DNA from: Loxodes magnus
Lineage: Eukaryota > Ciliophora > Karyorelictea > Loxodida > Loxodidae
NCBI GenBank assembly: GCA_946699065.1
Contig: CAMPDV010000216.1
Coordinates: 186,001 to 250,000, forward strand
Reading direction: 5' to 3'
DNA: 64,000 bases
Below the pieces are notes generated by a model. That model had not been told where the DNA came from and did not search any database. It was given only the letters and a program-made list of their open reading frames with translations. Of the stretch, positions 8,145 to 64,000 are shown one piece after another. A program made the position numbers and the translations under genes. Each line of letters begins with the position of its first letter. Within the stretch, counting starts at the first letter, position 1.

Positions 8145-9140
8145 TCATGTACACGCTACTAGGTAAAAATAGAATAGAAATAAAACTACCATGAAAGAAA
8201 AAAGGAGAGCCATATAGTCAAATTCTTTTTTGCTTCCTTCTTCTGAAGCTTTTTACTCTTTTTCTTCTTTTTTAAGTTGAAGTAATAAATTAGTGAATGT
8301 TATATCACTAGAAAATCATTCTTGACTTTATTGAGATCTTTAAGTGCTTTCTTCACTGATAATGCTTAGACTGGAAAATGAGCTTTAATTTTATAAAGGT
8401 TAAGTGCTATTTGCTTTTCTAATTCTTTCATTCACTTATTCTAGGGGTACTTAGCTACCTTTTACCAAGACTTATATCTTAGGTATGTTTCTCAAACCGT
8501 TTAAGTTTATTTTTTCCTTAGGATTTTTTGTTTAAGTGTAAGGAGTAGTCCATTATGAAGTCATAAACTTTTATCAATCTTATGCTTCTTATTATTCCTT
8601 TGTTATCAAGCTTGTATTGCCAATTTTTGTTTCTAGTTCGCTCTATTTTTATTATAAGAATACTTAAACTTTATTAGATGCCTTTTTTTAATTAACACCT
8701 TGTGAGCTATTCAGACTAGACTAGCCTAAATTACTTCTTTTTCTAGGGGCTAAATCAAAATCATTTGAGATAGATCTCATAATTTAGCTTTGCTTGTTCA
8801 TGCTTTGATTTATATTCTTTAAATTACCTTTAAAAAGTTGATCTGAAATTTTAACCCTTTCATTTTGGGCCTTATTGTCAGCATCTTACCAATCATCACT
8901 AATTTACCGCATCTTTAAATGCCATAAATTCTAAGTTTCAATACTCTCAAAGTTTTTCTATTCCACCTTACTCTTAAGCTTTTGCAAGGATTCCTTCTTC
9001 TCCTAACTCGTCCGTAACCAGCACATCTAGTCTTAGTTATCCAATAAAAGTTTATTTTTCTTACCCTCTAATTCCAAACTTTTCTAATATTTTTCTACAT
9101 TTATGCATTTTAGTCCTTCACCTGAATCTTGCTTCCACAT
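8145..9140 (-). CDS. Gene B (R1 copy): tail-anchored protein, 331 aa
   Basis: ATG at 9140, TGA at 8145-8147, 332 codons, the same length as the R3 copy despite many differences. It has no N-terminal signal. The body is hydrophilic and rich in Gln, Lys and Ser, with a Cys-Trp pair near residue 42, a conserved Gln-Asp-Trp-x-Lys-Phe-Met-Thr-Ser-Gln block near residue 188, and Ser-rich and Glu-rich stretches. The last 24 residues form one membrane segment rich in Phe, Leu and Tyr, ending Val-Ala-Cys-Thr. This fits a tail-anchored membrane protein with its body in the cytosol (inference). In the conserved block R1 has TGA where R3 has TGG, direct evidence for TGA as Trp. Nine complete copies occur in the window. 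No known family recognised. Confidence 0.8.
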
Positions 9141-14181: not shown

Positions 14182-16854
14182 ATGTATATATAATAAGACT
14201 CTATCATCTTTGAAAAATTTATCTTCTAATAATTTTTCAATTGAGTCACTAAGAAATTGATGGCTCTTTAATCTAATCTAATTTAAATTATAAATAAACA
14301 TTTGTCTTTGATTCTATTTTATTAGACTATATAGATGTAATTTTCATATATATAATAGCAAATTAAAATTACTAAATAAATATGATTTTATTTCAATTTC
14401 ATTTTTTTATTTATTTTTAAACAGAGAATTTGCAACGCTTGATATTAAAAATCTCTTAGATTTTCGCTTTAATTACTCAAAATATCTCTATTTAAGAGGT
14501 ATTACACCATTGATCATTTGTAATTCATTGCATATGAAAAATTAGCTTTTGTTATTTATACCTAACTAACTTTTAATGCTCTATTATATTTAATTAATTA
14601 ATTTATTATTATACCATATCACTTCAAAACAGAGTAAGCAGCTAGTTTAATTTCTAAGTAGCAGATTTCTGAAAATCTCTAATTTCTTGTTCTTAACCTC
14701 TTAATTAAATTACTTACCTCATTAAGATTTTTTATTACTAGCCTTTAATCTAAAATTCTTACCCTTACCTATCTCATGTAGCAGTAAAGAGATATTTTGC
14801 TCCTGTTTATCTTTTTAAACTCTATATTTAAGAGTATTGCTGAGCACTTATCATCTATCACTCTATTTCTAACTCTTCATTTTATCTTCAATGTCTTTAC
14901 TACCAATAAATAAAAGTATGATTTGCTACTTAAAGTTGATATTTCTGTCTCCGTTCCTAGGACTTATTTTTCCTATTAATCTAATTAATGCTATCTAATT
15001 AAATGTAGAAGCTAATTTATTAGATAATTTACATTTAGGTAAAAACACTAGAACTGCTCTGATCATAAAAGTCATATCCTAATAATTAGCCTTATACCTT
15101 TTCTTACTTACATATAATCCCTAAGATATTTATTTATATTTAACTATCTAACATATAAATACCTAGCTTGACTATCCATAATTACACCATTATTGGGTAA
15201 TTAATTATACCTAAATTATTTGAATATCAAAAGGCTGTTTAGCAGATAATTAGTTGTAACCAGAGTCAAATTAAACTAGCATAATAAGTACTAAAATGCC
15301 AGGTAAAAAATGCACTAACTTGGTAAGATCTAATAAGGGGTTTATGAATGATTAGAGTAAATAAAAAGCAGAAAAGTAAGAACTTAATTTCATATTTTAC
15401 ATCCTCTGGTATAATAATAGAGTAGCATCTAGAAACATAAATTTGCTTGTAATTTGCATGATAAAAAAATGAATTAAAGTTAAAAGAGTGTATATATTAG
15501 CCCTAAAAAAGCTAAATATGCATTAATTTAAATAAAGCTTCTAGAATAAAACTAACAGCATATATGTTTGGCATATAAATCTAATTCATCGAATGCAAAT
15601 AACCATATTACAGTACTAGGATAGTTAAAGTTAAGCAGATTTTTCCATTTCTTGATGTATAATCCTTTTAAGATATCAAGTAGTTCTTACATTGTAAACC
15701 ATATTTAGCTTAAGTTTAAAAGTTATACTTAAATTTGTAGTGTTTAATTGATATTAGGAATTAACGTTTTTATATAAACAGTTAATTAAAGAAAAAGGTT
15801 TATAAAAACCTATTTAAATACAGCATAAAATGCAGGAATAAAGTGTATACCCTAAAATAGCCGTGAAGCCATAATAGAAAAAATATCAATGCTTAGTCAA
15901 GTAAAGTCAAGGAAATCGCTGATTGAAGAATGTGAAGACTAAGGTTAAGAAATTAACTAGAACTTAATGGAACTGGAGGAAAAATTGGAGTTTGCAAGCA
16001 AAGTAATTAAGTAGTAGCATGGGAGGAATAGATTTCAGAATTTGAAGCATTTAAAAGTAAAACGTATTCTAGATAAGTGATATCAAACACTATACATGGA
16101 CTTTGCTATAAACTAAAGAGACAATGAATAGCCTTAAGTTGGAGATTTGAAAATATTGTGATATTATAAGCTAAGTAAAAATATGAAAAATCAATCTTCT
16201 AGTGAGAAATAGCTCATTCCATGTTATTAGCAAAACAATTCTTTACTTACTCCAAATTATAAGTATTAAATAATACTTTAAGATAAAAAAGTAAATTAAA
16301 AGGAGATCTTACAGGGAATTTAAAATGAATAATTAAATGCAATACAATAGAGAAAGTATTAAGAAATAAGTTATTTAGATTCTTAGGAAGAAATCTTAGA
16401 GTAAAAATAATATTCTGACTTTCTAATTAAGAATTTTTAAACTCTCTAGAAATAAATTAAAAGCTTGCGAAATTCAAAATAAAAAGGTAAAAATCTTTTG
16501 GTATAAAATGAGAACAATTAAATGGAAGACTCACTGGATAATCTATCTTCCATTGAATTAGCGTGAAATGAAAATTCAAGCACATCATTTTCATAATTTT
16601 ATATAAAAAAGGATTTGTTTTCAATTTTTGACACTGTTAGTGCTAAAAGTTCCTCAAAATATTGGATCAATTAAACTTTCAATTTTAATTCTTATGTAAT
16701 AAGCTCTTCATGATAAAGTTACGGAGATTAAGCAAGTTTTAATCAAGCTAGTTGCAAAGTAAAAGACAAATGGTCAACTAAATAGATGGAGTGTTTTTTT
16801 CTCTGCATAATGGTTTTAATATCTTCTTACTTTTATTTGACAGTGAAAGGATGA
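14182..16854 (+). pseudogene. Gene A, R2 copy, frame not kept
   Basis: Homologous to A of R1 along both exons, with the same kind of start context (Asp-Ser-Ile after the first codons), the equivalent intron at 15798-15823 (26 nt) and the same final Gly-TGA at 16852-16854. Neither exon length is divisible by three (1616 and 1031 nt), so the copy has small insertions or deletions, unless further introns exist. Probably no longer functional. Confidence 0.5.
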
Positions 16855-19117: not shown

Positions 19118-20104
19118 TCATGTACAGGCTACTAGGTAAAAATAAAATAGAAATAAAATTGCCAAGCAAAAAAGCAAGAAAGCTACATAGTCAGATTCAT
19201 TTTTGTTTCCTTCTACAGGAGCTTCTTTCTCGTTTTCTTCTTCATTATTTTGAAGCTATAAATTAGAGAATATTCTATCACTAGAAAATCATTCTTAACT
19301 CGACTGAGATATTGAAGTGCTTTCTTTGCTGATAATGCTAAGATGGGTAAATGAGCTTTAATTTTTAAAAATCTAAGTGCTATCTGCTTTTCTAATTCTT
19401 TCATTCTCTTATTTTAGGGGCACAAAGCCATTTTTTACCAAGACTTATTGCTTAGATGTGTTTATAAAATCTGTTAAGTTTTTTTCCTTTAGCTTTTTTG
19501 TTTAACTACAAGGAATAAACCATTATGAAGTCATAAATTTTTTCCAATCTTATGCTTCTTACTATTCCATTGCTATCGAGCTTATATTACCAACTTTAGC
19601 TTTTAGTTTGCTTTATTTTTATTATTAGAGTGATTAAACTTTGCTAGCTGGTATTTTTTAATTAACATATTGAGAGCTATTCCAAATAGACTAGCTTTAA
19701 TTACTTCTTATTTTAGGGATGGATTCTGAATCCTTTGAGATAAATCTCTTATTTTAGCTTTTCTTATTCATGTTTTGATTTAAACTCTTTAAATTTCCTT
19801 TAAAAGGCTGTTCCAAGACTTTAAGCCTTTCAGTATAGACCGTTCCATCAGCAGCATAGTAATCATCGCAAATTTATCGTATCTTTTAATGCTATAAGTT
19901 CTAAGTTTCAGCACCTTTGAAGCCTTTCTATTCCACCTTGCTTTTAAGTATTTACTCGGAGCCTTTCTCCTCATAACTCGTCCATAACCAGCATGCCTTA
20001 CCTTATTTACCCAAAGAAAGACCCCTTTTCTTTAGTTCCAAAGTCTCCTAGTTTTTTCTTGTAGATATGCGTTTTAGGTATTCATCCGAATTCTGTTTCT
20101 GCAT
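19118..20104 (-). CDS. Gene B (R2 copy): tail-anchored protein, 328 aa
   Basis: ATG at 20104, TGA at 19118-19120, 329 codons, fully open. It keeps the Cys-Trp-Leu-Trp motif near residue 42, the Gln-Asp-Trp-Lys-Lys-Phe-Met-Thr-Ser-Gln block and the C-terminal membrane anchor ending Val-Ala-Cys-Thr. It stays intact although its neighbours A, C and D in R2 are damaged or cut, which suggests selection on B alone or recent gene conversion. Confidence 0.78.
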
Positions 20105-43258: not shown

Positions 43259-43301
43259 GTGATTGGCATACGAGCACTTATACATATTTTTAACTTATTA
43301 G

Positions 43302-45292: not shown

Positions 45293-45390
45293 TATATTTC
45301 ATCTTATCTTTTTGGAATATTTAAGGGGTAAGTTAATGGCATAACTCTATAAGAGGAAAGCAAACGGTTATATAGGATATTTGCTATGAA

Positions 45391-45990: not shown

Positions 45991-46144
45991 AGTCCATAGT
46001 TCTTATGGTGTTCACCATATTTAGTTTAAGATTATAAGGTTTTTAGAAATTTTAGTATTAAAGTTATATCTGAAATAAACGCATTTATATAAGTAGCTAA
46101 TTAAAGAAAAAAGGTTATAAAACCCTATTTAAATACAGTATAAA

Positions 46145-47158
46145 ATGCAGGAATAAAGAGTATATCCTTAGATAGTCGTAAATCCAATATAGAAATCTAG
46201 ATCAATGCTTAGTCAAGTAAAGTCAAGGAAATTGCTGAATGAAGAATTTGGAGATTAAGATTAAGAATCTAACTAGAGCTTAAATGAACTGGAGGAGAAA
46301 AGGGAATTTTTAAGCAAGGTAATTAAGTAGTAACATGTGAGGAATAGAGTACAGAATCTGAATCACTTGAAAGTAAATCGTATTCTAAATAATTGGCGTA
46401 AAATGCTACAAATGAATTTTGTTATAAACTAAAGAGACAATGAGTAGCCTTAAGTAGGAGACCTGAAAATATTGAGATAATACAAGCTTAGTAAAAATAT
46501 GAAAAAGTAATCATCTAGTGAGAAGTAACTCCCTCCATGTAATCAAAACAATTCTTTACTTACTCCAAATTATGAATATTAAGAAAGATTTTAAGATAAA
46601 AAAGTAAATTAAAAGGAAATTTTATAGGGAATTTAAAAAGGATAATCAGATGCTTTACAATAAGAGATGAAGTACCAAGAGAGAAGTAATTTAGATTCTT
46701 AGGGTGAAGTTTTAGAGTAAAAAGAGCATTCTGCCTTTGTAATTAAGAACTTTTGAAATCTCTAGAAATAAATTCAAAGATTGCGAAATTCAAAGTAAGA
46801 AGGTTAAAATATTTTGGTACCAAATGAAAATAAAAAAATAAAAGATTCATTTGATAGAATATCTTCCATTGAATTAGCGTGAAATGAAAAATCAAACAGA
46901 TCATTTTCGTAATCTTATATAAAAAAGGATTCTTTTTCCAGCTCTGACACTGCTAATGAAAAAAGTTCCCCAATATCTCAGATCAATTAGACTTTCAATA
47001 TAAGTTCTTGTAAAATTAGTTATTACAGAGAGTAAGCAAGCTTCAATCAAACTAGTTACAAAGTAAAGGACAAATGGTCAACTGAATAGATACATTTTTT
47101 TTGTCTGTGCATAGTAGTTTTAATATCTTCTTACTTTTATTTGTTAGTGAAAGGATGA
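46145..47158 (+). CDS. Gene A exon 2, R4 copy, open for 337 aa
   Basis: Homologous to exon 2 of A in R1. From the Met at 46145 to TGA 47156-47158 it is open for 338 codons, with the same ending (membrane segment of about 20 residues, then Lys-Gly-TGA). The upstream membrane exon is missing except for about 130 bp with the intron end (AATACAG at 46132-46138), so this is either a stranded 3' exon or a shorter protein starting at this Met. Its good preservation in a fragment is surprising. Confidence 0.55.
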
Positions 47159-48329
47159 AGCCACAAAACTTAATTATATATATTTTATATTTCCCAAAGT
47201 CTTCCTAACTTATTAGTTAAAATTACTAGAAACAAAAGTTTGTCATTAGCTTTTATTCAACTATATTAAAATAAAAATTCAAGCTTGTATATTCCTAGAA
47301 TAATCTCACTAAGATAGAGATAAAATATATCAACAATGGAAATGCAATTTTAAGGGTTATAAATTGAGTCAAGAATATTTGCATATAGCTTAATATCTTT
47401 AACTACTTAAGTTAGTTAATATAACTTAAGATCTTAAGATATAGCTTAGTATATCAACCTACATTAAATTGATAAGTTTTCTAAATTTTGGTTAGTTTTG
47501 AATTTATTTGATTAAACCCTTTTCTGACTATTTTGATTTTTAGTAACTGACTATTAATAAATGATTAAGAGAATAACTCCCTAAGAAACACTATTATCAA
47601 TTTTCTTTTAAAGATATGCATATAAAGAGAAAATAATTTTTAAGTTAGTTATATAAAATAGAATTGAGGGTTTTCATAAGAACTTTCATCTTTTAAGACT
47701 GTTTAATTTTATTTCTTGATTATAAGGTTTCTTTCAAACTTAACAATCTCATGTCTATAAAGCTTTAGCTTTCACGCCTTTTTCATAGATATTTTTTCTG
47801 TTTCTTAAGTTTTAATTAAAAAAGCTTAAATACCTGAAAATCTTAAAATTAAAAACTTTTATATAACTCTTTAATAAGCAATACTTTAATAATAAAATAC
47901 AAACTAAATATATTTCTATGATTAAAACCTTTCTCGGTTTAATGGGATAAATTAATTAAAAGCTTCCAATTTTTTCTTCCTTTCATTCTCTTTATATTCA
48001 GTAACTTTCTATCTCTATCGATCTTTTTGAAATCATTATTAAATAATTGAGTATCTATGTACTGTAATAAGATGATTTGTTCTTGATGGATTGGCATTAT
48101 ATCCTATATACACTCTTTAAAGTGTTATTGATATAACTTTTATCATGCAAAAAATAATAAATTTATACTTCTAATGTTAATCTATTATGATATAAATTGG
48201 ATTAATAACACTGATCTAAATTCCTACTAATTCTGCTCTTTATTAACAATAATTATTCATGAATCCCTAATTGGATCACACCTAGTTAGTGTTTTTTTCT
48301 GAACAGTTTTATAATTAATATGTTAGTTC
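47159..48329. other. A 3' spacer of R4 and unique AT-rich DNA
   Basis: Up to about 48010 it matches R1 3359-5110 without the 846-bp insertion (empty site near 47540). The remainder is AT-rich with no gene seen. Confidence 0.5.
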
Positions 48330-48600
48330 AATTGACTTTGGTCGCAAATAGTTATCTCCTAAATAGACTATAATGATAAAATAAGATAAGTTGTAACTAT
48401 ATACCAATAATGATATAATTAAAGAAGATCAAGCTAGGAGTCTATGTGTTTGATAGTTAAATAAAAGAATAGATCTAAGTTACTATATATATGAAAAAAA
48501 TTCTTGGAAGTCTAATTATTAGGTTATATCAGCTATGATAAGAGTACGTTCTAGTGTTTTTAACTGAAGGAAAATTAGTTATTTGAATAAGCATCGACTT
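48330..48600 (-). pseudogene. Inverted fragment of gene A exon 1
   Basis: The reverse complement matches R2 about 15030-15265 inside exon 1 of A, including the stretch around the conserved CTAGTGTTTT and TAGATAGTTAAAT. It ends exactly where the tandem array starts, so it is the left flank of the array. Confidence 0.55.
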
Positions 48601-49204
48601 GTCAAAAATTACCAAGCTTCTTTCAGTAGTGATGCTTTTCACTTTAAGACATATACTTTTGCTGCATTATCTTAGAAGAATCATCAAAGTAAAATAGAAG
48701 TTAACCCTCACATGTAGTTTATTGGTCTTCTCATCATAGTTAATAATCATAATATACCTAAGCTAACCATAAATGTGTGCTCTAAATCATAAGCTTAAGA
48801 AGGTTTATTTAAAGACTAAAGATATTCTATATTAAGCTTAGTAAAATAAGGTAGTAAAGAGAGATCTACTTTATATATTATACAATTAGAAAATATAATA
48901 AGCAAATTAGTCTAGCTTCAAGTATATGAAACTAATGCTTATAGGATAGAGGGCTTTATATTATATCTCTCCCTTAGATACCTATTAATGCAAAAATATA
49001 ATTTTTATACCTGTCGTTTGTTATCCTAAGCAACTTAAAATATTACTAAGCTCAATATCCTTTTATAGCCATACTCATATACTAATTTTATTTTCTTAAC
49101 TATTTATAGACAAAATTATATCACTCTTAATAATGATAGCTACAAGCATTCTTTTATACAATTTTACCATTTTATGATTAACTAGTCTTCAATTTAAACT
49201 CCAT
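48601..49204 (-). pseudogene. D' start fragment at the array's left edge
   Basis: Identical to the first 604 bp of the D' genes in the array (Met-Glu-Phe-Lys start at 49204), but the array ends here, so the rest of D' is missing. It is followed on the minus strand by the inverted A fragment. Confidence 0.7.
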
Positions 49205-49297
49205 ATTCAATATGGCTATTCAGTGGCTTTTCAATTATTAAGTATTAATTTAGCATTTCTGACATTTAAATTGCTAATACCATTTTATAACAAAAAA
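49205..49297. promoter_or_regulatory. 93-bp divergent D'/B' promoter spacer (repeats in each unit)
   Basis: Lies between the divergent starts of D' (minus) and B' (plus). Identical copies at 51710-51802, 54215-54307, 56720-56812, 59225-59317 and 61730-61822. Contains the palindrome CCATATTCAATATGG overlapping the D' start. Confidence 0.45.
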
Positions 49298-50227
49298 ATG
49301 AGCAACCATTCAGGTGAATGTGGCATATCTGTAGAAACTAAATAGGTGGGATCAGAGGGTAAGAAAAAGAAGCTTTCCTTGGGTAAATAAGGGTAGTCCT
49401 GCTGGTTATGGATGAGTTATGAGCAGAAATGCTCCGAGCAAAAGCTTAAAAGCAAGGTGGAATAGAAAAGTTTCAAAGATGCTGAAACTTAGAACTTCTA
49501 GCTTTTAAAGATGCGATAAATTTGCGATGATAAGTATAACGTAGAAAGAACGGTCTAAAATGAAAGGTATAAAGTTTCAGATAAAATTTTTAAAGGTAAT
49601 TTAAAGAATCTAAATCAAAGCATGAATAAGCAAAGCTAAAGATCTATCTCAAAGGATTCAGACTTCACCCCTAAAAAAAGAACTAATTAAGGCTAGACTT
49701 GTAGTTCTGTAGAATAAAAAAAGGCAGCTAACAAATCACTCTAATAAAAAAGCAAAATAGAAGCAAAAGTTGGCAATATAAGCTTGATAGCAATGGAATA
49801 ATAAGAAGCATAAGATTGAAAAAAGTTTATGACTTCATAATGGTCTATTCCTTACAGTTAAACAAAAAAGCCAAAGAAAAACTTAACAGAATTGAGAAAC
49901 ATACCTTAAGTTTTAGCAAAAGATAGTTTTATTCCCCTATAAGAGAATGAAAGAATTAGGCAATTAAATAACGTTACACCCTTATAAAATTAAAGCTCTT
50001 TTTCCAGTCTAAGTTCGTTGAGTGAAGAAAGCATTTCTCAGTTAGGCTAAGATTGGCGTTCTAGTGATAGAACATTCTCTGAATTATCGCTTCAGCTTAA
50101 CGAAGAAGAAAAAGAGTAAGAAGGTTGAGAAGAAGGAAGTTAAAAAGAATCTGACTATGTGGTTGTTTTGTTTTCTTGCATGACAATTTTACTCCTATTA
50201 TATTGTTACCTAGCTATATGTGGATGA
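49298..50227 (+). CDS. Gene B' (array copy 1): tail-anchored protein, 309 aa
   Basis: ATG 49298, TGA 50225-50227, 310 codons, open throughout. Relative to the 331-residue B it has a different first 15 residues and several small in-frame deletions, but keeps Cys-Trp-Leu-Trp, Gln-Asp-Trp-Lys-Lys-Phe-Met-Thr-Ser-Gln (the Trp is TGA), the Ser-rich stretch, the Glu-rich stretch and a single C-terminal membrane segment of about 23 residues ending Ile-Cys-Gly. All indels relative to B are multiples of three, a sign that the protein is maintained. Its stop lies 45 bp from the stop of the convergent D'. Confidence 0.8.
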
Positions 50228-50272
50228 TTTGCTTATGTACACTTATATTTAACTTATTTTTAATTAAGCATA

Positions 50273-51709
50273 TCAGTATATCTCCTCATAAACTATATAA
50301 TAATAGCTAAGAATATATTAATGGATATAGCAAAGATATGGTTGAAAGTATTTGAGTTAGAGAAATAAATAAGGAGATATTAAATTAGATGATTAAAGAT
50401 GTTTGATATGATTCAGCTAAATGTCTAGGTAATTAAAGGTTTAATGCCTTCACTTTTTTATATTTACTCTAATATAACCACATTTTATAAAAGAACTAAA
50501 TAATTTTATTTAATAGCCATTTAATAATGATCTACTGTTTAATTATTTCAGAAGCTATTTTTTAAAGTTAATTTATCCTTTTTATTAACTTTAAAATGTT
50601 TACCTTCAGATTCTTTTAAATATATATAATAAGCCTAGATAGTCTTTTATTACTCACCCTTAGTATAAGAGACCATTTCAGTATTTTTCAGTTAGGAGAC
50701 TAATTCTTCTAGTCAAAGGAGTTCTTAGCTAAGTTCTCATTAGGACTGAAAAGAGTCAAACTAAGTTTCTAGAGTGTAATGAAAATTAGACTTGAGTCTT
50801 TATGATCTTAAGATCTAATTTATGGTAAGTAGTTTGGGAGTACAATAAGCCTGATTACATCAGGTTGGAATAAAGCAGATAATTATCTACTAGCATAGGA
50901 AAAATAATGATATATAGCTTTAAAAGTAATGATAAAGCATCTAGTAATATAAGTTACTACTACTATGCTTTAGTTATAATCTCTTTTGTAAAGACTAGGG
51001 AAAGCTATATGTAGATGAGGCTTTAATAATTAATAGGACATAAACCATCATTTTGCTATATCTTGATATTAGCTTAATGGCTTACAAAAAGAAGTATAAA
51101 TATTAGTCAAAAATTACCAAGCTTCTTTCAGTAGTGATGCTTTTCACTTTAAGACATATACTTTTGCTGCATTATCTTAGAAGAATCATCAAAGTAAAAT
51201 AGAAGTTAACCCTCACATGTAGTTTATTGGTCTTCTCATCATAGTTAATAATCATAATATACCTAAGCTAACCATAAATGTGTGCTCTAAATCATAAGCT
51301 TAAGAAGGTTTATTTAAAGACTAAAGATATTCTATATTAAGCTTAGTAAAATAAGGTAGTAAAGAGAGATCTACTTTATATATTATACAATTAGAAAATA
51401 TAATAAGCAAATTAGTCTAGCTTCAAGTATATGAAACTAATGCTTATAGGATAGAGGGCTTTATATTATATCTCTCCCTTAGATACCTATTAATGCAAAA
51501 ATATAATTTTTATACCTGTCGTTTGTTATCCTAAGCAACTTAAAATATTACTAAGCTCAATATCCTTTTATAGCCATACTCATATACTAATTTTATTTTC
51601 TTAACTATTTATAGACAAAATTATATCACTCTTAATAATGATAGCTACAAGCATTCTTTTATACAATTTTACCATTTTATGATTAACTAGTCTTCAATTT
51701 AAACTCCAT
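50273..51709 (-). CDS. Gene D' (array copy 1): 478-aa membrane protein, D/C chimera
   Basis: ATG 51709, TGA 50273-50275, 479 codons in one frame across the unit junction at 51105/51106. The first part follows D (Met-Glu-Phe-Lys start, Ser-Tyr-His-Tyr, membrane segment near residue 100, Thr-Thr-Cys-Glu-Gly-Gln near 168, another membrane segment near 205-220), but long middle parts of D are gone, including the PAS-like stretch. The last 60-70 codons look like the C-terminal end of C (Asp-Ile-x-Leu block and a Leu/Tyr/Phe-rich hydrophobic end). It takes the place that C has beside B in R1. Possible introns, for example near 51480-51510, were not needed for an open frame. Function unknown. Confidence 0.62.
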
Positions 51710-51802
51710 ATTCAATATGGCTATTCAGTGGCTTTTCAATTATTAAGTATTAATTTAGCATTTCTGACATTTAAATTGCTAATACCATTTTATAACAAAA
51801 AA

Positions 51803-52732
51803 ATGAGCAACCATTCAGGTGAATGTGGCATATCTGTAGAAACTAAATAGGTGGGATCAGAGGGTAAGAAAAAGAAGCTTTCCTTGGGTAAATAAGGGTA
51901 GTCCTGCTGGTTATGGATGAGTTATGAGCAGAAATGCTCCGAGCAAAAGCTTAAAAGCAAGGTGGAATAGAAAAGTTTCAAAGATGCTGAAACTTAGAAC
52001 TTCTAGCTTTTAAAGATGCGATAAATTTGCGATGATAAGTATAACGTAGAAAGAACGGTCTAAAATGAAAGGTATAAAGTTTCAGATAAAATTTTTAAAG
52101 GTAATTTAAAGAATCTAAATCAAAGCATGAATAAGCAAAGCTAAAGATCTATCTCAAAGGATTCAGACTTCACCCCTAAAAAAAGAACTAATTAAGGCTA
52201 GACTTGTAGTTCTGTAGAATAAAAAAAGGCAGCTAACAAATCACTCTAATAAAAAAGCAAAATAGAAGCAAAAGTTGGCAATATAAGCTTGATAGCAATG
52301 GAATAATAAGAAGCATAAGATTGAAAAAAGTTTATGACTTCATAATGGTCTATTCCTTACAGTTAAACAAAAAAGCCAAAGAAAAACTTAACAGAATTGA
52401 GAAACATACCTTAAGTTTTAGCAAAAGATAGTTTTATTCCCCTATAAGAGAATGAAAGAATTAGGCAATTAAATAACGTTACACCCTTATAAAATTAAAG
52501 CTCTTTTTCCAGTCTAAGTTCGTTGAGTGAAGAAAGCATTTCTCAGTTAGGCTAAGATTGGCGTTCTAGTGATAGAACATTCTCTGAATTATCGCTTCAG
52601 CTTAACGAAGAAGAAAAAGAGTAAGAAGGTTGAGAAGAAGGAAGTTAAAAAGAATCTGACTATGTGGTTGTTTTGTTTTCTTGCATGACAATTTTACTCC
52701 TATTATATTGTTACCTAGCTATATGTGGATGA
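51803..52732 (+). CDS. Gene B' (array copy 2)
   Basis: Identical repeat of the B' gene at 49298-50227, shifted by 2505 bp. 309 residues, tail-anchored. Confidence 0.78.
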
Positions 52733-52777
52733 TTTGCTTATGTACACTTATATTTAACTTATTTTTAATTAAGCATA

Positions 52778-54214
52778 TCAGTATATCTCCTCATAAACTA
52801 TATAATAATAGCTAAGAATATATTAATGGATATAGCAAAGATATGGTTGAAAGTATTTGAGTTAGAGAAATAAATAAGGAGATATTAAATTAGATGATTA
52901 AAGATGTTTGATATGATTCAGCTAAATGTCTAGGTAATTAAAGGTTTAATGCCTTCACTTTTTTATATTTACTCTAATATAACCACATTTTATAAAAGAA
53001 CTAAATAATTTTATTTAATAGCCATTTAATAATGATCTACTGTTTAATTATTTCAGAAGCTATTTTTTAAAGTTAATTTATCCTTTTTATTAACTTTAAA
53101 ATGTTTACCTTCAGATTCTTTTAAATATATATAATAAGCCTAGATAGTCTTTTATTACTCACCCTTAGTATAAGAGACCATTTCAGTATTTTTCAGTTAG
53201 GAGACTAATTCTTCTAGTCAAAGGAGTTCTTAGCTAAGTTCTCATTAGGACTGAAAAGAGTCAAACTAAGTTTCTAGAGTGTAATGAAAATTAGACTTGA
53301 GTCTTTATGATCTTAAGATCTAATTTATGGTAAGTAGTTTGGGAGTACAATAAGCCTGATTACATCAGGTTGGAATAAAGCAGATAATTATCTACTAGCA
53401 TAGGAAAAATAATGATATATAGCTTTAAAAGTAATGATAAAGCATCTAGTAATATAAGTTACTACTACTATGCTTTAGTTATAATCTCTTTTGTAAAGAC
53501 TAGGGAAAGCTATATGTAGATGAGGCTTTAATAATTAATAGGACATAAACCATCATTTTGCTATATCTTGATATTAGCTTAATGGCTTACAAAAAGAAGT
53601 ATAAATATTAGTCAAAAATTACCAAGCTTCTTTCAGTAGTGATGCTTTTCACTTTAAGACATATACTTTTGCTGCATTATCTTAGAAGAATCATCAAAGT
53701 AAAATAGAAGTTAACCCTCACATGTAGTTTATTGGTCTTCTCATCATAGTTAATAATCATAATATACCTAAGCTAACCATAAATGTGTGCTCTAAATCAT
53801 AAGCTTAAGAAGGTTTATTTAAAGACTAAAGATATTCTATATTAAGCTTAGTAAAATAAGGTAGTAAAGAGAGATCTACTTTATATATTATACAATTAGA
53901 AAATATAATAAGCAAATTAGTCTAGCTTCAAGTATATGAAACTAATGCTTATAGGATAGAGGGCTTTATATTATATCTCTCCCTTAGATACCTATTAATG
54001 CAAAAATATAATTTTTATACCTGTCGTTTGTTATCCTAAGCAACTTAAAATATTACTAAGCTCAATATCCTTTTATAGCCATACTCATATACTAATTTTA
54101 TTTTCTTAACTATTTATAGACAAAATTATATCACTCTTAATAATGATAGCTACAAGCATTCTTTTATACAATTTTACCATTTTATGATTAACTAGTCTTC
54201 AATTTAAACTCCAT
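52778..54214 (-). CDS. Gene D' (array copy 2)
   Basis: Identical repeat of D' at 50273-51709, shifted by 2505 bp. 478 residues. Confidence 0.6.
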
Positions 54215-54307
54215 ATTCAATATGGCTATTCAGTGGCTTTTCAATTATTAAGTATTAATTTAGCATTTCTGACATTTAAATTGCTAATACCATTTTATAA
54301 CAAAAAA

Positions 54308-55237
54308 ATGAGCAACCATTCAGGTGAATGTGGCATATCTGTAGAAACTAAATAGGTGGGATCAGAGGGTAAGAAAAAGAAGCTTTCCTTGGGTAAATAA
54401 GGGTAGTCCTGCTGGTTATGGATGAGTTATGAGCAGAAATGCTCCGAGCAAAAGCTTAAAAGCAAGGTGGAATAGAAAAGTTTCAAAGATGCTGAAACTT
54501 AGAACTTCTAGCTTTTAAAGATGCGATAAATTTGCGATGATAAGTATAACGTAGAAAGAACGGTCTAAAATGAAAGGTATAAAGTTTCAGATAAAATTTT
54601 TAAAGGTAATTTAAAGAATCTAAATCAAAGCATGAATAAGCAAAGCTAAAGATCTATCTCAAAGGATTCAGACTTCACCCCTAAAAAAAGAACTAATTAA
54701 GGCTAGACTTGTAGTTCTGTAGAATAAAAAAAGGCAGCTAACAAATCACTCTAATAAAAAAGCAAAATAGAAGCAAAAGTTGGCAATATAAGCTTGATAG
54801 CAATGGAATAATAAGAAGCATAAGATTGAAAAAAGTTTATGACTTCATAATGGTCTATTCCTTACAGTTAAACAAAAAAGCCAAAGAAAAACTTAACAGA
54901 ATTGAGAAACATACCTTAAGTTTTAGCAAAAGATAGTTTTATTCCCCTATAAGAGAATGAAAGAATTAGGCAATTAAATAACGTTACACCCTTATAAAAT
55001 TAAAGCTCTTTTTCCAGTCTAAGTTCGTTGAGTGAAGAAAGCATTTCTCAGTTAGGCTAAGATTGGCGTTCTAGTGATAGAACATTCTCTGAATTATCGC
55101 TTCAGCTTAACGAAGAAGAAAAAGAGTAAGAAGGTTGAGAAGAAGGAAGTTAAAAAGAATCTGACTATGTGGTTGTTTTGTTTTCTTGCATGACAATTTT
55201 ACTCCTATTATATTGTTACCTAGCTATATGTGGATGA
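54308..55237 (+). CDS. Gene B' (array copy 3)
   Basis: Third repeat of B'. Same start, stop and sequence at the expected offset. Confidence 0.78.
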
Positions 55238-55282
55238 TTTGCTTATGTACACTTATATTTAACTTATTTTTAATTAAGCATA

Positions 55283-56719
55283 TCAGTATATCTCCTCATA
55301 AACTATATAATAATAGCTAAGAATATATTAATGGATATAGCAAAGATATGGTTGAAAGTATTTGAGTTAGAGAAATAAATAAGGAGATATTAAATTAGAT
55401 GATTAAAGATGTTTGATATGATTCAGCTAAATGTCTAGGTAATTAAAGGTTTAATGCCTTCACTTTTTTATATTTACTCTAATATAACCACATTTTATAA
55501 AAGAACTAAATAATTTTATTTAATAGCCATTTAATAATGATCTACTGTTTAATTATTTCAGAAGCTATTTTTTAAAGTTAATTTATCCTTTTTATTAACT
55601 TTAAAATGTTTACCTTCAGATTCTTTTAAATATATATAATAAGCCTAGATAGTCTTTTATTACTCACCCTTAGTATAAGAGACCATTTCAGTATTTTTCA
55701 GTTAGGAGACTAATTCTTCTAGTCAAAGGAGTTCTTAGCTAAGTTCTCATTAGGACTGAAAAGAGTCAAACTAAGTTTCTAGAGTGTAATGAAAATTAGA
55801 CTTGAGTCTTTATGATCTTAAGATCTAATTTATGGTAAGTAGTTTGGGAGTACAATAAGCCTGATTACATCAGGTTGGAATAAAGCAGATAATTATCTAC
55901 TAGCATAGGAAAAATAATGATATATAGCTTTAAAAGTAATGATAAAGCATCTAGTAATATAAGTTACTACTACTATGCTTTAGTTATAATCTCTTTTGTA
56001 AAGACTAGGGAAAGCTATATGTAGATGAGGCTTTAATAATTAATAGGACATAAACCATCATTTTGCTATATCTTGATATTAGCTTAATGGCTTACAAAAA
56101 GAAGTATAAATATTAGTCAAAAATTACCAAGCTTCTTTCAGTAGTGATGCTTTTCACTTTAAGACATATACTTTTGCTGCATTATCTTAGAAGAATCATC
56201 AAAGTAAAATAGAAGTTAACCCTCACATGTAGTTTATTGGTCTTCTCATCATAGTTAATAATCATAATATACCTAAGCTAACCATAAATGTGTGCTCTAA
56301 ATCATAAGCTTAAGAAGGTTTATTTAAAGACTAAAGATATTCTATATTAAGCTTAGTAAAATAAGGTAGTAAAGAGAGATCTACTTTATATATTATACAA
56401 TTAGAAAATATAATAAGCAAATTAGTCTAGCTTCAAGTATATGAAACTAATGCTTATAGGATAGAGGGCTTTATATTATATCTCTCCCTTAGATACCTAT
56501 TAATGCAAAAATATAATTTTTATACCTGTCGTTTGTTATCCTAAGCAACTTAAAATATTACTAAGCTCAATATCCTTTTATAGCCATACTCATATACTAA
56601 TTTTATTTTCTTAACTATTTATAGACAAAATTATATCACTCTTAATAATGATAGCTACAAGCATTCTTTTATACAATTTTACCATTTTATGATTAACTAG
56701 TCTTCAATTTAAACTCCAT
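55283..56719 (-). CDS. Gene D' (array copy 3)
   Basis: Third repeat of D', convergent with B' copy 3 (45 bp between stops). Confidence 0.6.
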
Positions 56720-56812
56720 ATTCAATATGGCTATTCAGTGGCTTTTCAATTATTAAGTATTAATTTAGCATTTCTGACATTTAAATTGCTAATACCATTT
56801 TATAACAAAAAA

Positions 56813-57742
56813 ATGAGCAACCATTCAGGTGAATGTGGCATATCTGTAGAAACTAAATAGGTGGGATCAGAGGGTAAGAAAAAGAAGCTTTCCTTGGGTA
56901 AATAAGGGTAGTCCTGCTGGTTATGGATGAGTTATGAGCAGAAATGCTCCGAGCAAAAGCTTAAAAGCAAGGTGGAATAGAAAAGTTTCAAAGATGCTGA
57001 AACTTAGAACTTCTAGCTTTTAAAGATGCGATAAATTTGCGATGATAAGTATAACGTAGAAAGAACGGTCTAAAATGAAAGGTATAAAGTTTCAGATAAA
57101 ATTTTTAAAGGTAATTTAAAGAATCTAAATCAAAGCATGAATAAGCAAAGCTAAAGATCTATCTCAAAGGATTCAGACTTCACCCCTAAAAAAAGAACTA
57201 ATTAAGGCTAGACTTGTAGTTCTGTAGAATAAAAAAAGGCAGCTAACAAATCACTCTAATAAAAAAGCAAAATAGAAGCAAAAGTTGGCAATATAAGCTT
57301 GATAGCAATGGAATAATAAGAAGCATAAGATTGAAAAAAGTTTATGACTTCATAATGGTCTATTCCTTACAGTTAAACAAAAAAGCCAAAGAAAAACTTA
57401 ACAGAATTGAGAAACATACCTTAAGTTTTAGCAAAAGATAGTTTTATTCCCCTATAAGAGAATGAAAGAATTAGGCAATTAAATAACGTTACACCCTTAT
57501 AAAATTAAAGCTCTTTTTCCAGTCTAAGTTCGTTGAGTGAAGAAAGCATTTCTCAGTTAGGCTAAGATTGGCGTTCTAGTGATAGAACATTCTCTGAATT
57601 ATCGCTTCAGCTTAACGAAGAAGAAAAAGAGTAAGAAGGTTGAGAAGAAGGAAGTTAAAAAGAATCTGACTATGTGGTTGTTTTGTTTTCTTGCATGACA
57701 ATTTTACTCCTATTATATTGTTACCTAGCTATATGTGGATGA
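56813..57742 (+). CDS. Gene B' (array copy 4)
   Basis: Fourth repeat of B', unchanged at the positions I compared. Confidence 0.78.
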
Positions 57743-57787
57743 TTTGCTTATGTACACTTATATTTAACTTATTTTTAATTAAGCATA

Positions 57788-59224
57788 TCAGTATATCTCC
57801 TCATAAACTATATAATAATAGCTAAGAATATATTAATGGATATAGCAAAGATATGGTTGAAAGTATTTGAGTTAGAGAAATAAATAAGGAGATATTAAAT
57901 TAGATGATTAAAGATGTTTGATATGATTCAGCTAAATGTCTAGGTAATTAAAGGTTTAATGCCTTCACTTTTTTATATTTACTCTAATATAACCACATTT
58001 TATAAAAGAACTAAATAATTTTATTTAATAGCCATTTAATAATGATCTACTGTTTAATTATTTCAGAAGCTATTTTTTAAAGTTAATTTATCCTTTTTAT
58101 TAACTTTAAAATGTTTACCTTCAGATTCTTTTAAATATATATAATAAGCCTAGATAGTCTTTTATTACTCACCCTTAGTATAAGAGACCATTTCAGTATT
58201 TTTCAGTTAGGAGACTAATTCTTCTAGTCAAAGGAGTTCTTAGCTAAGTTCTCATTAGGACTGAAAAGAGTCAAACTAAGTTTCTAGAGTGTAATGAAAA
58301 TTAGACTTGAGTCTTTATGATCTTAAGATCTAATTTATGGTAAGTAGTTTGGGAGTACAATAAGCCTGATTACATCAGGTTGGAATAAAGCAGATAATTA
58401 TCTACTAGCATAGGAAAAATAATGATATATAGCTTTAAAAGTAATGATAAAGCATCTAGTAATATAAGTTACTACTACTATGCTTTAGTTATAATCTCTT
58501 TTGTAAAGACTAGGGAAAGCTATATGTAGATGAGGCTTTAATAATTAATAGGACATAAACCATCATTTTGCTATATCTTGATATTAGCTTAATGGCTTAC
58601 AAAAAGAAGTATAAATATTAGTCAAAAATTACCAAGCTTCTTTCAGTAGTGATGCTTTTCACTTTAAGACATATACTTTTGCTGCATTATCTTAGAAGAA
58701 TCATCAAAGTAAAATAGAAGTTAACCCTCACATGTAGTTTATTGGTCTTCTCATCATAGTTAATAATCATAATATACCTAAGCTAACCATAAATGTGTGC
58801 TCTAAATCATAAGCTTAAGAAGGTTTATTTAAAGACTAAAGATATTCTATATTAAGCTTAGTAAAATAAGGTAGTAAAGAGAGATCTACTTTATATATTA
58901 TACAATTAGAAAATATAATAAGCAAATTAGTCTAGCTTCAAGTATATGAAACTAATGCTTATAGGATAGAGGGCTTTATATTATATCTCTCCCTTAGATA
59001 CCTATTAATGCAAAAATATAATTTTTATACCTGTCGTTTGTTATCCTAAGCAACTTAAAATATTACTAAGCTCAATATCCTTTTATAGCCATACTCATAT
59101 ACTAATTTTATTTTCTTAACTATTTATAGACAAAATTATATCACTCTTAATAATGATAGCTACAAGCATTCTTTTATACAATTTTACCATTTTATGATTA
59201 ACTAGTCTTCAATTTAAACTCCAT
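57788..59224 (-). CDS. Gene D' (array copy 4)
   Basis: Fourth repeat of D', unchanged at the positions I compared. Confidence 0.6.
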
Positions 59225-59317
59225 ATTCAATATGGCTATTCAGTGGCTTTTCAATTATTAAGTATTAATTTAGCATTTCTGACATTTAAATTGCTAATAC
59301 CATTTTATAACAAAAAA

Positions 59318-60247
59318 ATGAGCAACCATTCAGGTGAATGTGGCATATCTGTAGAAACTAAATAGGTGGGATCAGAGGGTAAGAAAAAGAAGCTTTCCTT
59401 GGGTAAATAAGGGTAGTCCTGCTGGTTATGGATGAGTTATGAGCAGAAATGCTCCGAGCAAAAGCTTAAAAGCAAGGTGGAATAGAAAAGTTTCAAAGAT
59501 GCTGAAACTTAGAACTTCTAGCTTTTAAAGATGCGATAAATTTGCGATGATAAGTATAACGTAGAAAGAACGGTCTAAAATGAAAGGTATAAAGTTTCAG
59601 ATAAAATTTTTAAAGGTAATTTAAAGAATCTAAATCAAAGCATGAATAAGCAAAGCTAAAGATCTATCTCAAAGGATTCAGACTTCACCCCTAAAAAAAG
59701 AACTAATTAAGGCTAGACTTGTAGTTCTGTAGAATAAAAAAAGGCAGCTAACAAATCACTCTAATAAAAAAGCAAAATAGAAGCAAAAGTTGGCAATATA
59801 AGCTTGATAGCAATGGAATAATAAGAAGCATAAGATTGAAAAAAGTTTATGACTTCATAATGGTCTATTCCTTACAGTTAAACAAAAAAGCCAAAGAAAA
59901 ACTTAACAGAATTGAGAAACATACCTTAAGTTTTAGCAAAAGATAGTTTTATTCCCCTATAAGAGAATGAAAGAATTAGGCAATTAAATAACGTTACACC
60001 CTTATAAAATTAAAGCTCTTTTTCCAGTCTAAGTTCGTTGAGTGAAGAAAGCATTTCTCAGTTAGGCTAAGATTGGCGTTCTAGTGATAGAACATTCTCT
60101 GAATTATCGCTTCAGCTTAACGAAGAAGAAAAAGAGTAAGAAGGTTGAGAAGAAGGAAGTTAAAAAGAATCTGACTATGTGGTTGTTTTGTTTTCTTGCA
60201 TGACAATTTTACTCCTATTATATTGTTACCTAGCTATATGTGGATGA
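59318..60247 (+). CDS. Gene B' (array copy 5)
   Basis: Fifth repeat of B'. Confidence 0.78.
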
Positions 60248-60292
60248 TTTGCTTATGTACACTTATATTTAACTTATTTTTAATTAAGCATA

Positions 60293-61729
60293 TCAGTATA
60301 TCTCCTCATAAACTATATAATAATAGCTAAGAATATATTAATGGATATAGCAAAGATATGGTTGAAAGTATTTGAGTTAGAGAAATAAATAAGGAGATAT
60401 TAAATTAGATGATTAAAGATGTTTGATATGATTCAGCTAAATGTCTAGGTAATTAAAGGTTTAATGCCTTCACTTTTTTATATTTACTCTAATATAACCA
60501 CATTTTATAAAAGAACTAAATAATTTTATTTAATAGCCATTTAATAATGATCTACTGTTTAATTATTTCAGAAGCTATTTTTTAAAGTTAATTTATCCTT
60601 TTTATTAACTTTAAAATGTTTACCTTCAGATTCTTTTAAATATATATAATAAGCCTAGATAGTCTTTTATTACTCACCCTTAGTATAAGAGACCATTTCA
60701 GTATTTTTCAGTTAGGAGACTAATTCTTCTAGTCAAAGGAGTTCTTAGCTAAGTTCTCATTAGGACTGAAAAGAGTCAAACTAAGTTTCTAGAGTGTAAT
60801 GAAAATTAGACTTGAGTCTTTATGATCTTAAGATCTAATTTATGGTAAGTAGTTTGGGAGTACAATAAGCCTGATTACATCAGGTTGGAATAAAGCAGAT
60901 AATTATCTACTAGCATAGGAAAAATAATGATATATAGCTTTAAAAGTAATGATAAAGCATCTAGTAATATAAGTTACTACTACTATGCTTTAGTTATAAT
61001 CTCTTTTGTAAAGACTAGGGAAAGCTATATGTAGATGAGGCTTTAATAATTAATAGGACATAAACCATCATTTTGCTATATCTTGATATTAGCTTAATGG
61101 CTTACAAAAAGAAGTATAAATATTAGTCAAAAATTACCAAGCTTCTTTCAGTAGTGATGCTTTTCACTTTAAGACATATACTTTTGCTGCATTATCTTAG
61201 AAGAATCATCAAAGTAAAATAGAAGTTAACCCTCACATGTAGTTTATTGGTCTTCTCATCATAGTTAATAATCATAATATACCTAAGCTAACCATAAATG
61301 TGTGCTCTAAATCATAAGCTTAAGAAGGTTTATTTAAAGACTAAAGATATTCTATATTAAGCTTAGTAAAATAAGGTAGTAAAGAGAGATCTACTTTATA
61401 TATTATACAATTAGAAAATATAATAAGCAAATTAGTCTAGCTTCAAGTATATGAAACTAATGCTTATAGGATAGAGGGCTTTATATTATATCTCTCCCTT
61501 AGATACCTATTAATGCAAAAATATAATTTTTATACCTGTCGTTTGTTATCCTAAGCAACTTAAAATATTACTAAGCTCAATATCCTTTTATAGCCATACT
61601 CATATACTAATTTTATTTTCTTAACTATTTATAGACAAAATTATATCACTCTTAATAATGATAGCTACAAGCATTCTTTTATACAATTTTACCATTTTAT
61701 GATTAACTAGTCTTCAATTTAAACTCCAT
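60293..61729 (-). CDS. Gene D' (array copy 5)
   Basis: Fifth repeat of D'. Confidence 0.6.
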
Positions 61730-61822
61730 ATTCAATATGGCTATTCAGTGGCTTTTCAATTATTAAGTATTAATTTAGCATTTCTGACATTTAAATTGCT
61801 AATACCATTTTATAACAAAAAA

Positions 61823-62752
61823 ATGAGCAACCATTCAGGTGAATGTGGCATATCTGTAGAAACTAAATAGGTGGGATCAGAGGGTAAGAAAAAGAAGCTT
61901 TCCTTGGGTAAATAAGGGTAGTCCTGCTGGTTATGGATGAGTTATGAGCAGAAATGCTCCGAGCAAAAGCTTAAAAGCAAGGTGGAATAGAAAAGTTTCA
62001 AAGATGCTGAAACTTAGAACTTCTAGCTTTTAAAGATGCGATAAATTTGCGATGATAAGTATAACGTAGAAAGAACGGTCTAAAATGAAAGGTATAAAGT
62101 TTCAGATAAAATTTTTAAAGGTAATTTAAAGAATCTAAATCAAAGCATGAATAAGCAAAGCTAAAGATCTATCTCAAAGGATTCAGACTTCACCCCTAAA
62201 AAAAGAACTAATTAAGGCTAGACTTGTAGTTCTGTAGAATAAAAAAAGGCAGCTAACAAATCACTCTAATAAAAAAGCAAAATAGAAGCAAAAGTTGGCA
62301 ATATAAGCTTGATAGCAATGGAATAATAAGAAGCATAAGATTGAAAAAAGTTTATGACTTCATAATGGTCTATTCCTTACAGTTAAACAAAAAAGCCAAA
62401 GAAAAACTTAACAGAATTGAGAAACATACCTTAAGTTTTAGCAAAAGATAGTTTTATTCCCCTATAAGAGAATGAAAGAATTAGGCAATTAAATAACGTT
62501 ACACCCTTATAAAATTAAAGCTCTTTTTCCAGTCTAAGTTCGTTGAGTGAAGAAAGCATTTCTCAGTTAGGCTAAGATTGGCGTTCTAGTGATAGAACAT
62601 TCTCTGAATTATCGCTTCAGCTTAACGAAGAAGAAAAAGAGTAAGAAGGTTGAGAAGAAGGAAGTTAAAAAGAATCTGACTATGTGGTTGTTTTGTTTTC
62701 TTGCATGACAATTTTACTCCTATTATATTGTTACCTAGCTATATGTGGATGA
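61823..62752 (+). CDS. Gene B' (array copy 6)
   Basis: Sixth and last complete B' in the window. Confidence 0.78.
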
Positions 62753-62797
62753 TTTGCTTATGTACACTTATATTTAACTTATTTTTAATTAAGCATA

Positions 62798-64000
62798 TCA
62801 GTATATCTCCTCATAAACTATATAATAATAGCTAAGAATATATTAATGGATATAGCAAAGATATGGTTGAAAGTATTTGAGTTAGAGAAATAAATAAGGA
62901 GATATTAAATTAGATGATTAAAGATGTTTGATATGATTCAGCTAAATGTCTAGGTAATTAAAGGTTTAATGCCTTCACTTTTTTATATTTACTCTAATAT
63001 AACCACATTTTATAAAAGAACTAAATAATTTTATTTAATAGCCATTTAATAATGATCTACTGTTTAATTATTTCAGAAGCTATTTTTTAAAGTTAATTTA
63101 TCCTTTTTATTAACTTTAAAATGTTTACCTTCAGATTCTTTTAAATATATATAATAAGCCTAGATAGTCTTTTATTACTCACCCTTAGTATAAGAGACCA
63201 TTTCAGTATTTTTCAGTTAGGAGACTAATTCTTCTAGTCAAAGGAGTTCTTAGCTAAGTTCTCATTAGGACTGAAAAGAGTCAAACTAAGTTTCTAGAGT
63301 GTAATGAAAATTAGACTTGAGTCTTTATGATCTTAAGATCTAATTTATGGTAAGTAGTTTGGGAGTACAATAAGCCTGATTACATCAGGTTGGAATAAAG
63401 CAGATAATTATCTACTAGCATAGGAAAAATAATGATATATAGCTTTAAAAGTAATGATAAAGCATCTAGTAATATAAGTTACTACTACTATGCTTTAGTT
63501 ATAATCTCTTTTGTAAAGACTAGGGAAAGCTATATGTAGATGAGGCTTTAATAATTAATAGGACATAAACCATCATTTTGCTATATCTTGATATTAGCTT
63601 AATGGCTTACAAAAAGAAGTATAAATATTAGTCAAAAATTACCAAGCTTCTTTCAGTAGTGATGCTTTTCACTTTAAGACATATACTTTTGCTGCATTAT
63701 CTTAGAAGAATCATCAAAGTAAAATAGAAGTTAACCCTCACATGTAGTTTATTGGTCTTCTCATCATAGTTAATAATCATAATATACCTAAGCTAACCAT
63801 AAATGTGTGCTCTAAATCATAAGCTTAAGAAGGTTTATTTAAAGACTAAAGATATTCTATATTAAGCTTAGTAAAATAAGGTAGTAAAGAGAGATCTACT
63901 TTATATATTATACAATTAGAAAATATAATAAGCAAATTAGTCTAGCTTCAAGTATATGAAACTAATGCTTATAGGATAGAGGGCTTTATATTATATCTCT
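62798..64000 (-). CDS. Gene D' (array copy 6), N-terminus beyond window
   Basis: Sixth repeat of D'. The stop and C-terminal part are here; by the 2505-bp period its start would lie at 64234, outside the window. Confidence 0.6.

What the first reader, a model, noticed from the sequence alone, without database searches (positions are those of the whole stretch)
48601..64000. Perfect tandem array of a two-gene cassette, period 2505 bp
At least six identical units, each with a complete B' and a complete D' gene, arranged tail to tail (45 bp) and head to head (93 bp), so almost no DNA is spare. I know of no described ciliate gene array of this kind. It could serve gene dosage, act as a source of antigenic or sensor variants, or be a selfish cassette.
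Basis: partly seen in the sequence, partly recalled or inferred. Interest (0 to 1): 0.85.

Follow-up and report, generated by a model that had tools for sequence, protein, structure and literature searches.

The report
Tandem gene array in ciliate Loxodes
An assembled ciliate chromosome shows about fifteen nearly identical head-to-tail copies of one gene with its flanking DNA; similar evenly spaced series of beta-tubulin and elongation-factor-type genes occur in the same genome, which may be how a cell with a barely amplified working nucleus raises gene dosage.

Summary
The array is in the assembly and longer than reported: C216:234601-273901 (from window 48601, 39.3 kb), 15 full 2505-bp units plus 1704 bp. 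Twelve units are identical; all 27 differences are single-base changes within one central 6.1-kb stretch, as an unpolished interior would give (method). Each unit holds one supported gene, B' (49298-50227, 309 aa, one C-terminal hydrophobic segment), not two: "D'" lacks coding support. The genome fits the Loxodes magnus MAC assembly (705.7 versus 706 Mbp) and its code. B' is a diverged member of a large family, often paired convergently with gene A, amplified in place. Evenly spaced series also occur for beta-tubulin (9 x 3342 bp) and EF-Tu-type GTPases (15 x 1641-1669; 6 x 2813 bp); none was seen among 96 actin matches (clustered), 31 histone-fold matches or 136 kinase matches (of 5592 candidates). 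Best reading: recent local amplification, plausibly for dosage in a paradiploid macronucleus. True copy number and expression are untested.

The parts
48601..64000 (+). Tandem array, period 2505 bp, 6 full units plus 370 bp inside the window; continues outside it to C216:273901 (15 full units plus 1704 bp in all)
49298..50227 (+). Gene B', copy 1: 309 aa under code table 27, TGA stop at 50225-50227; two in-frame TGA read as Trp; hydrophobic C-terminal segment at residues 289-307
51803..52732 (+). Gene B', copy 2, identical
54308..55237 (+). Gene B', copy 3, identical
56813..57742 (+). Gene B', copy 4, identical
59318..60247 (+). Gene B', copy 5, identical
61823..62752 (+). Gene B', copy 6, identical
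50228..51802 (.).
50304..50305 (.). Inferred head-to-tail joint of the duplicated segment (unit positions 1704/1705): the last copy runs from here into flank with the usual B-to-A spacing, so the copied segment would reach from about 1.5 kb upstream of B' to 77 bp after its stop
   Evidence: inference
46145..47158 (+). Gene A, left neighbour of the array: about 337 aa, TGA stop read from the translation, hydrophobic C-terminal segment
42317..43252 (+). B family relative (match range)
19124..20041 (-). B family relative (match range)
8151..9086 (-). B family relative (match range)
15877..16827 (+). A family relative (match range), convergent with the B at 19124
2330..3328 (+). A family relative (match range), convergent with the B at 8151

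Best explanation
A recent tandem amplification, in its own chromosomal place, of a 2505-bp segment that carries one gene (B') with about 1.5 kb of its upstream DNA and its 3' end, in the genome of the karyorelict ciliate Loxodes magnus. B' is a diverged member of a large family of proteins rich in polar and charged residues with one C-terminal hydrophobic segment, whose genes often face a partner gene A. Shown: the repeat in the assembly, the gene, the family, the frequent convergent pairing, near-native spacing at the right end, and evenly spaced series for two conserved gene families. Inferred: an initial duplication, growth and homogenisation by unequal exchange or replication, each unit acting as its own transcription unit, and retention because several copies raise dosage in a nucleus that is hardly amplified. 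I put the array and gene part at about 0.9 and the dosage role at about 0.4.
For: Period and identity. The 27 differences lie only between 18.0 kb from the left edge and 15.2 kb from the right edge, which fits published Racon polishing with reads of mapping quality 20 or more. B': TGA and TGG alternate at two Trp codons among relatives; in six 150-bp bins of each of three other B copies, 28 of 44 gaps are multiples of three, against 28 of 432 in the upstream region; dN/dS against 9 relatives 0.51-0.74. Near-native right end: 1249 bp from the B' stop to the next shared block, 1260 bp in another copy. Other series: 9 tubulin matches exactly 3342 bp apart, 100 of 100 bases equal where one period was compared, and identified as beta-tubulin by the 60 solved-structure matches shown of 171; EF-Tu-type GTPases, 15 matches 1641-1669 bp apart and 6 matches 2813 bp apart. 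Paradiploid macronucleus: PMC11441545, passage.
Against: No expression or read data here. Histone-fold matches, which one might also expect in demand, show no series (0 of 31), and actin shows clusters but no short-period series (0 of 96). Constraint on B is weak (dN/dS up to 0.77 among relatives). The function of B is unknown, so high demand for it is a guess. Only five conserved families were probed, and their lists are capped: 150 of 258 tubulin candidates, 71 of 195 GTPase candidates and 136 of 5592 kinase candidates were scored. 'Recent' rests on unit identity alone, which continued homogenisation would also give.
Confidence: 0.58

Rival explanations
1. Neutral macrosatellite: the segment was duplicated by chance and has drifted in copy number by unequal exchange; the gene inside is a passenger.
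For: The published analysis puts 231 Mbp of the assembly in tandem repeats, so tandem growth is common; constraint on B is weak; B' is diverged from its relatives, 62-70% protein identity to the ten aligned.
Against: The B' frame runs through to the hydrophobic end in the 12 identical units; evenly spaced series hit beta-tubulin and EF-Tu-type GTPase genes but none of 136 scored kinase matches.
Confidence: 0.32
2. Assembly artefact: the assembler inflated a short duplication into a long array.
For: The central 6.1 kb has the error pattern of unpolished sequence, so probably no uniquely placed read spans the middle and the copy number is not proven.
Against: Difference-free stretches of 18.0 kb from the left edge and 15.2 kb from the right suggest anchored reads inside array sequence; by inference about seven units or more. 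Series of other periods in the same assembly hold conserved genes.
Confidence: 0.08
3. Reservoir of antigenic or sensor variants.
For: The B family is diverse (128 scored matches, 18 of them in the array) and its members have a membrane-like C-terminal segment.
Against: Units are identical, so the array stores no variety. The anchor is C-terminal, and no hydrophobic N-terminus is seen in the translations from the start codon or in the hydropathy scan (where 6 of 11 ranges lack the first residues); a usual surface antigen would have one (recalled).
Confidence: 0.04
4. Selfish or mobile cassette, or a two-gene drive element made of A and B.
For: A and B are paired and dispersed over many contigs with sharp homology breaks on C216.
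Against: No mobility domain in the stretches scanned; full-identity units at one place only among the scored matches.
Confidence: 0.06

Closest known systems
Trypanosome tandem gene arrays (PMC1855330, start of abstract in the listings; PMC3708823 on Leishmania alpha-tubulin genes, title and start of abstract)
   Same: Tandem copies of single genes; dosage proposed as the purpose.
   Different: There arrays are transcribed polycistronically without individual promoters; here each unit has about 1.5 kb of noncoding DNA upstream and transcription is unknown.
Human gene-bearing macrosatellites: D4Z4/DUX4, RS447/USP17, CT47 (PMC3599962, passages)
   Same: Unit of several kb with one protein gene per unit, in tandem.
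   Different: Copy number polymorphism is documented there, not tested here; unrelated genes as far as the domain searches tell.
Ichthyophthirius immobilization antigen gene arrays (PMC3341644, passages)
   Same: Ciliate multigene family with tandem arrays; a group of members of 303-340 aa.
   Different: Mostly diverged copies of membrane-translocated, GPI-anchored antigens; here identical copies of a protein with a C-terminal hydrophobic segment and no signal-like N-terminus.
Loxodes magnus rDNA arrays (PMC11441545, passages)
   Same: Same species by inference, chromosomal head-to-tail arrays instead of extrachromosomal amplification.
   Different: rRNA rather than protein genes.

Membership tests
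Gene-bearing macrosatellite / tandem gene array | Kilobase-scale unit repeated head to tail at high identity | tested here: met
   2505 bp, 15 full units plus 1704 bp, 12 of 15 identical
Gene-bearing macrosatellite / tandem gene array | A protein-coding gene in each unit | tested here: met
   B' is the same in the 12 identical units, with comparative coding evidence from relatives. The three central units carry single-base insertions and deletions, some inside B', that look like sequencing errors
Gene-bearing macrosatellite / tandem gene array | Copy number varies between chromosomes or strains | not testable with these tools
   One assembly, no reads
Dosage array of trypanosome type | Copies are transcribed and output rises with copy number | not testable with these tools
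   No RNA data
Dosage array of trypanosome type | Arrays favour genes in high demand | tested here: inconclusive
   Evenly spaced series by eye: tubulin 9 of 150 matches (258 candidates), EF-Tu-type GTPases 21 of 71 (195 candidates), actin 0 of 96 but clustered, histone fold 0 of 31, kinases 0 of 136 (5592 candidates)
Mobile element | Mobility protein encoded | tested here: not met
   No Pfam match over its cut-off in three + frames of window 40401-50300, three - frames of 41301-51200, or 11 B proteins; other stretches and unknown types are not excluded
Mobile element | Common ends and target duplications in dispersed copies | not tested
Surface antigen array (Ichthyophthirius type) | N-terminal signal sequence and C-terminal GPI signal | tested here: not met
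   By hydropathy only, no signal-peptide program: one C-terminal segment in 11 of 11 B proteins, next best 19-residue window at most 0.31 (6 of 11 ranges lack the first residues, but translations from the start codon show polar N-termini). The C-terminal segment by itself could resemble an anchor signal

The most novel reading that the evidence does not exclude
Loxodes replaces somatic gene amplification by hard-wired germline arrays. Ordinary ciliates reach high gene dosage by copying the macronuclear genome many times; karyorelict macronuclei hardly do so, and Loxodes would instead keep homogenised head-to-tail arrays and clusters of the genes it needs most (rDNA, tubulin, EF-Tu-type GTPase, actin, and the unknown A/B membrane proteins) in the chromosome itself. 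B' would then mark a protein in high demand.
Probability: 0.3. Interest if true: 0.72.

Novelty: new member of a known kind. Interest (0 to 1): 0.46.

Why it matters
The single array is one more gene-bearing tandem repeat. What gives it weight is the company: in the same genome, conserved protein genes also sit in evenly spaced series. Loxodes is described as a ciliate without differential macronuclear amplification (PMC11441545, passages), so it is a natural test of how a ciliate supplies dosage without it. The published tandem-repeat annotation ran TRF with the settings 2 5 7 80 10 50 2000; the last number is the maximum period (recalled), so arrays of 2505, 2813 and 3342 bp would not be reported as such, and a 1641-bp array would be filed with 'low-complexity' repeats. 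Protein-gene arrays may therefore have gone unlisted; I saw passages and some sections of the main text, not the supplement.

Tried and rejected
Ciliate code 6 was replaced by table 27; under code 6 the longest frames in the window do not clearly exceed those of one shuffled control, 480 against 415 aa. One search used a B' frame shifted by one base; one search repeats it correctly. Searches used alignments with linear gap costs and were superseded. One search was meant to leave out the array but did not, so its top hits are self-matches; it is not used. (six-frame protein comparison) did not separate frames and was dropped, a sliding dN/dS scan, gave no steady frame by itself. In one search one relative of ten (B228) was translated from a wrong start and is left out of the dN/dS ranges. 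In one search the range of one A copy (L026) loses its C-terminus, seen as a missing hydrophobic segment.

Rfam and tRNA scans found nothing in the array part of the window. Profiles of A and B gave no solved-structure match below E 0.1, and A and B are not convincingly homologous (hhalign probability 42%). Structure prediction was not run, because the proteins look mostly disordered by composition. Two attempts to find the 18S rRNA gene failed with machine errors; the species is inferred from assembly size and code, not from a marker gene.
Full report
What is there. The window is C216:186001-250000 of a 705,730,643-base genome in 7843 contigs. Self-comparison at a lag of 2505 is 100% from window 48601 on and about 27-37% per 500 bases elsewhere in the window. 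I fetched C216:140001-350000 and 360001-410000 apart from the window itself. The array spans C216:234601-273901, 39,301 bp: 15 full units and a last copy of 1704 bp. Units 1-7 and 11-15 are identical, and so is the partial copy. Units 8-10 differ from them by 6, 10 and 11 single-base changes: 24 insertions, 2 deletions, 1 substitution, all in C216:252626-258729.

Which organism. The assembly size fits the Loxodes magnus MAC assembly of 706 Mbp (PMC11441545, passages). That species uses table 27, with UGA for Trp or stop (section read; the reading of UAA/UAG as Gln in that table is recalled). A tubulin gene in this genome, translated that way, matches beta-tubulin chains over two stretches of the permuted unit (60 of 171 matches shown, each with a beta-tubulin name) and has TAA/TAG at glutamines and TGA at a tryptophan of the usual beta-tubulin sequence (that motif recalled). 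The identification is an inference from size and code.

Is it an artefact? The assembly was made by Falcon from HiFi reads and polished by Racon only with reads of mapping quality 20 or more (section read). Reads wholly inside identical repeats should not reach that, so an unpolished centre is what the method should give. The difference-free stretches reach 18.0 kb from the left edge and 15.2 kb from the right edge. From this I infer that anchored reads run about seven units into the array on one side, and that the total of 15.7 units is the assembler's estimate.

One gene per unit. Under table 27 frame length says little: the longest TGA-free frame between two B' genes is 249 codons and 332 of 1000 shuffles reach it; for B' itself 570 of 1000 shuffles do. 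So I used relatives. Aligned with ten relatives on C216, B' keeps one frame from the start codon to a hydrophobic end and a TGA just after it, with indels mostly in threes, and TGA and TGG replace each other at two Trp codons; one relative (C216 local 231238) is shifted by a gap in its last codons. In six 150-bp bins inside each of three other B copies in the window, 28 of 44 alignment gaps are multiples of three (10 of 13, 8 of 17, 10 of 14); in the 20 bins of window 39201-42200, upstream of a relative and containing the stretch to which the D' patches align, 28 of 432 are. The same gap may be counted in several alignments. A codon score trained on 22 A and B match ranges gives 0.15-0.27 in one frame over most of B', while the rest of the unit stays near background; two windows (50596 and 50701, at 0.117 and 0.100) lie just above the background's 95% point of 0.09 and below its maximum of 0.18. 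That score leans towards proteins like A and B. A genome search with one D' frame gave 36 matches: 20 in the array, and 16 elsewhere that cover only residues 1-111 at most, the part next to the B gene. So some conserved DNA, perhaps a promoter, lies upstream of B genes; a D' protein is not supported, though only one of its frames was searched genome-wide.

What B' is. 309 residues, 63% K, E, Q, S, N, D, R, P or T, with a single hydrophobic segment at residues 289-307; 11 of 11 B proteins scanned have this form, and 11 of 12 A ranges have a weaker C-terminal segment (the A ranges stop short of its end). No Pfam or solved-structure family explains it. dN/dS is 0.51-0.74 for B' against nine relatives and 0.28-0.77 between those relatives, so constraint is weak.

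The family. The B' search scored 128 matches, 18 of them in the array; the best-scoring one outside is 64% identical. The A search gave 106 matches, some of them pieces of one gene. Counts are lower bounds. Read by eye from both lists, at least 25 contigs carry B and A facing each other, mostly 2.3-5 kb apart; on C216 three pairs have A and B in the same direction. The array's last B' faces an A at C216:276928-277926.

How the array formed. The unit is colinear with the upstream-plus-B region of five other copies, with parts missing. At the right end the distance from the B' stop to the next shared block, 1249 bp, is close to the 1260 bp of another copy, so I take that side as native. At the left end the flank joins the unit about 700 bp upstream of B', and the flank itself does not match the unit. 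The simplest account is duplication of a segment from about 1.5 kb upstream of B' to 77 bp beyond its stop, later growth, and loss of the left part of the first copy. 3' untranslated regions in this species are short, median 41 bp, so each unit should contain a complete transcription unit; that is inference.

The wider pattern. I probed five conserved families in the genome. Tubulin: 9 of 150 matches form a series with exact 3342-bp spacing on C441, eight of them with the same score; 100 of 100 bases agree where one period was compared. EF-Tu-type GTPases: 15 matches on C256 spaced 1641 or 1669 bp, with three slightly different scores, and 6 on C61 spaced 2813 bp with one score, 21 of 71 in all; their subtype was not checked. 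Actin: 43 of 96 matches score 450 bits or more and many lie in clusters, without short-period series. Histone fold: 31 matches, no series. Kinases: 136 matches scored of 5592 candidates, no series. Series were found by eye, and identity between units was checked only for the one stretch of C441. This leans towards arrays of genes in high demand, with histones against it.

Comparison. It may work like the tandem gene arrays of trypanosomes, for which dosage is the proposed purpose (PMC1855330, start of abstract), and it is built like human gene-bearing macrosatellites (PMC3599962, passages). Tandem arrays of ciliate antigen genes are known (PMC3341644, passages). What differs is the host: a ciliate whose macronucleus holds at most twice the micronuclear DNA (PMC11441545, passage).

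Verdict. The repeat is there, the second gene is not supported, and the kind is known. The general pattern it points to is worth a genome-wide scan.

Noticed in passing
G000 C441:147748-175110 (L043 is one unit): Nine tubulin matches exactly 3342 bp apart on one strand, eight with the same score; the unit read is beta-tubulin.
   Followed up: partly
G000 C256:306019-329642 and C61:513093-527727: EF-Tu-type GTPase matches in evenly spaced series: 15 at 1641 or 1669 bp and 6 at 2813 bp.
   Followed up: no
G000 C266, C707, C711, C437, C524, C1162 and other contigs; C64:618992-934095: 43 near-equal actin matches, many in clusters and some about 17 kb apart, and 21 tubulin matches on C64 in both orientations.
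   Followed up: no
C216 around 232145, 382998, 401037 (window 46145 for the first): In three A copies a segment of about 2 kb with gene A is inverted relative to its surroundings, with about the same breakpoints; elsewhere A mostly faces B.
   Followed up: partly
L009-L010 (C216:149249-158243): Homology between the large repeated modules breaks sharply at the same points in many copies, like a mosaic of blocks; cause unknown.
   Followed up: partly
window 35148-35221 and 36698-36849: A tRNA-Met gene and a U3 snoRNA match in a stretch (about 25.9-36.8 kb) without module repeats in the part of C216 fetched.
   Followed up: no
window 46145-47158: The A profile has weak matches to Vti1b chains (E 0.13 and 0.15); probably chance.
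   Followed up: no
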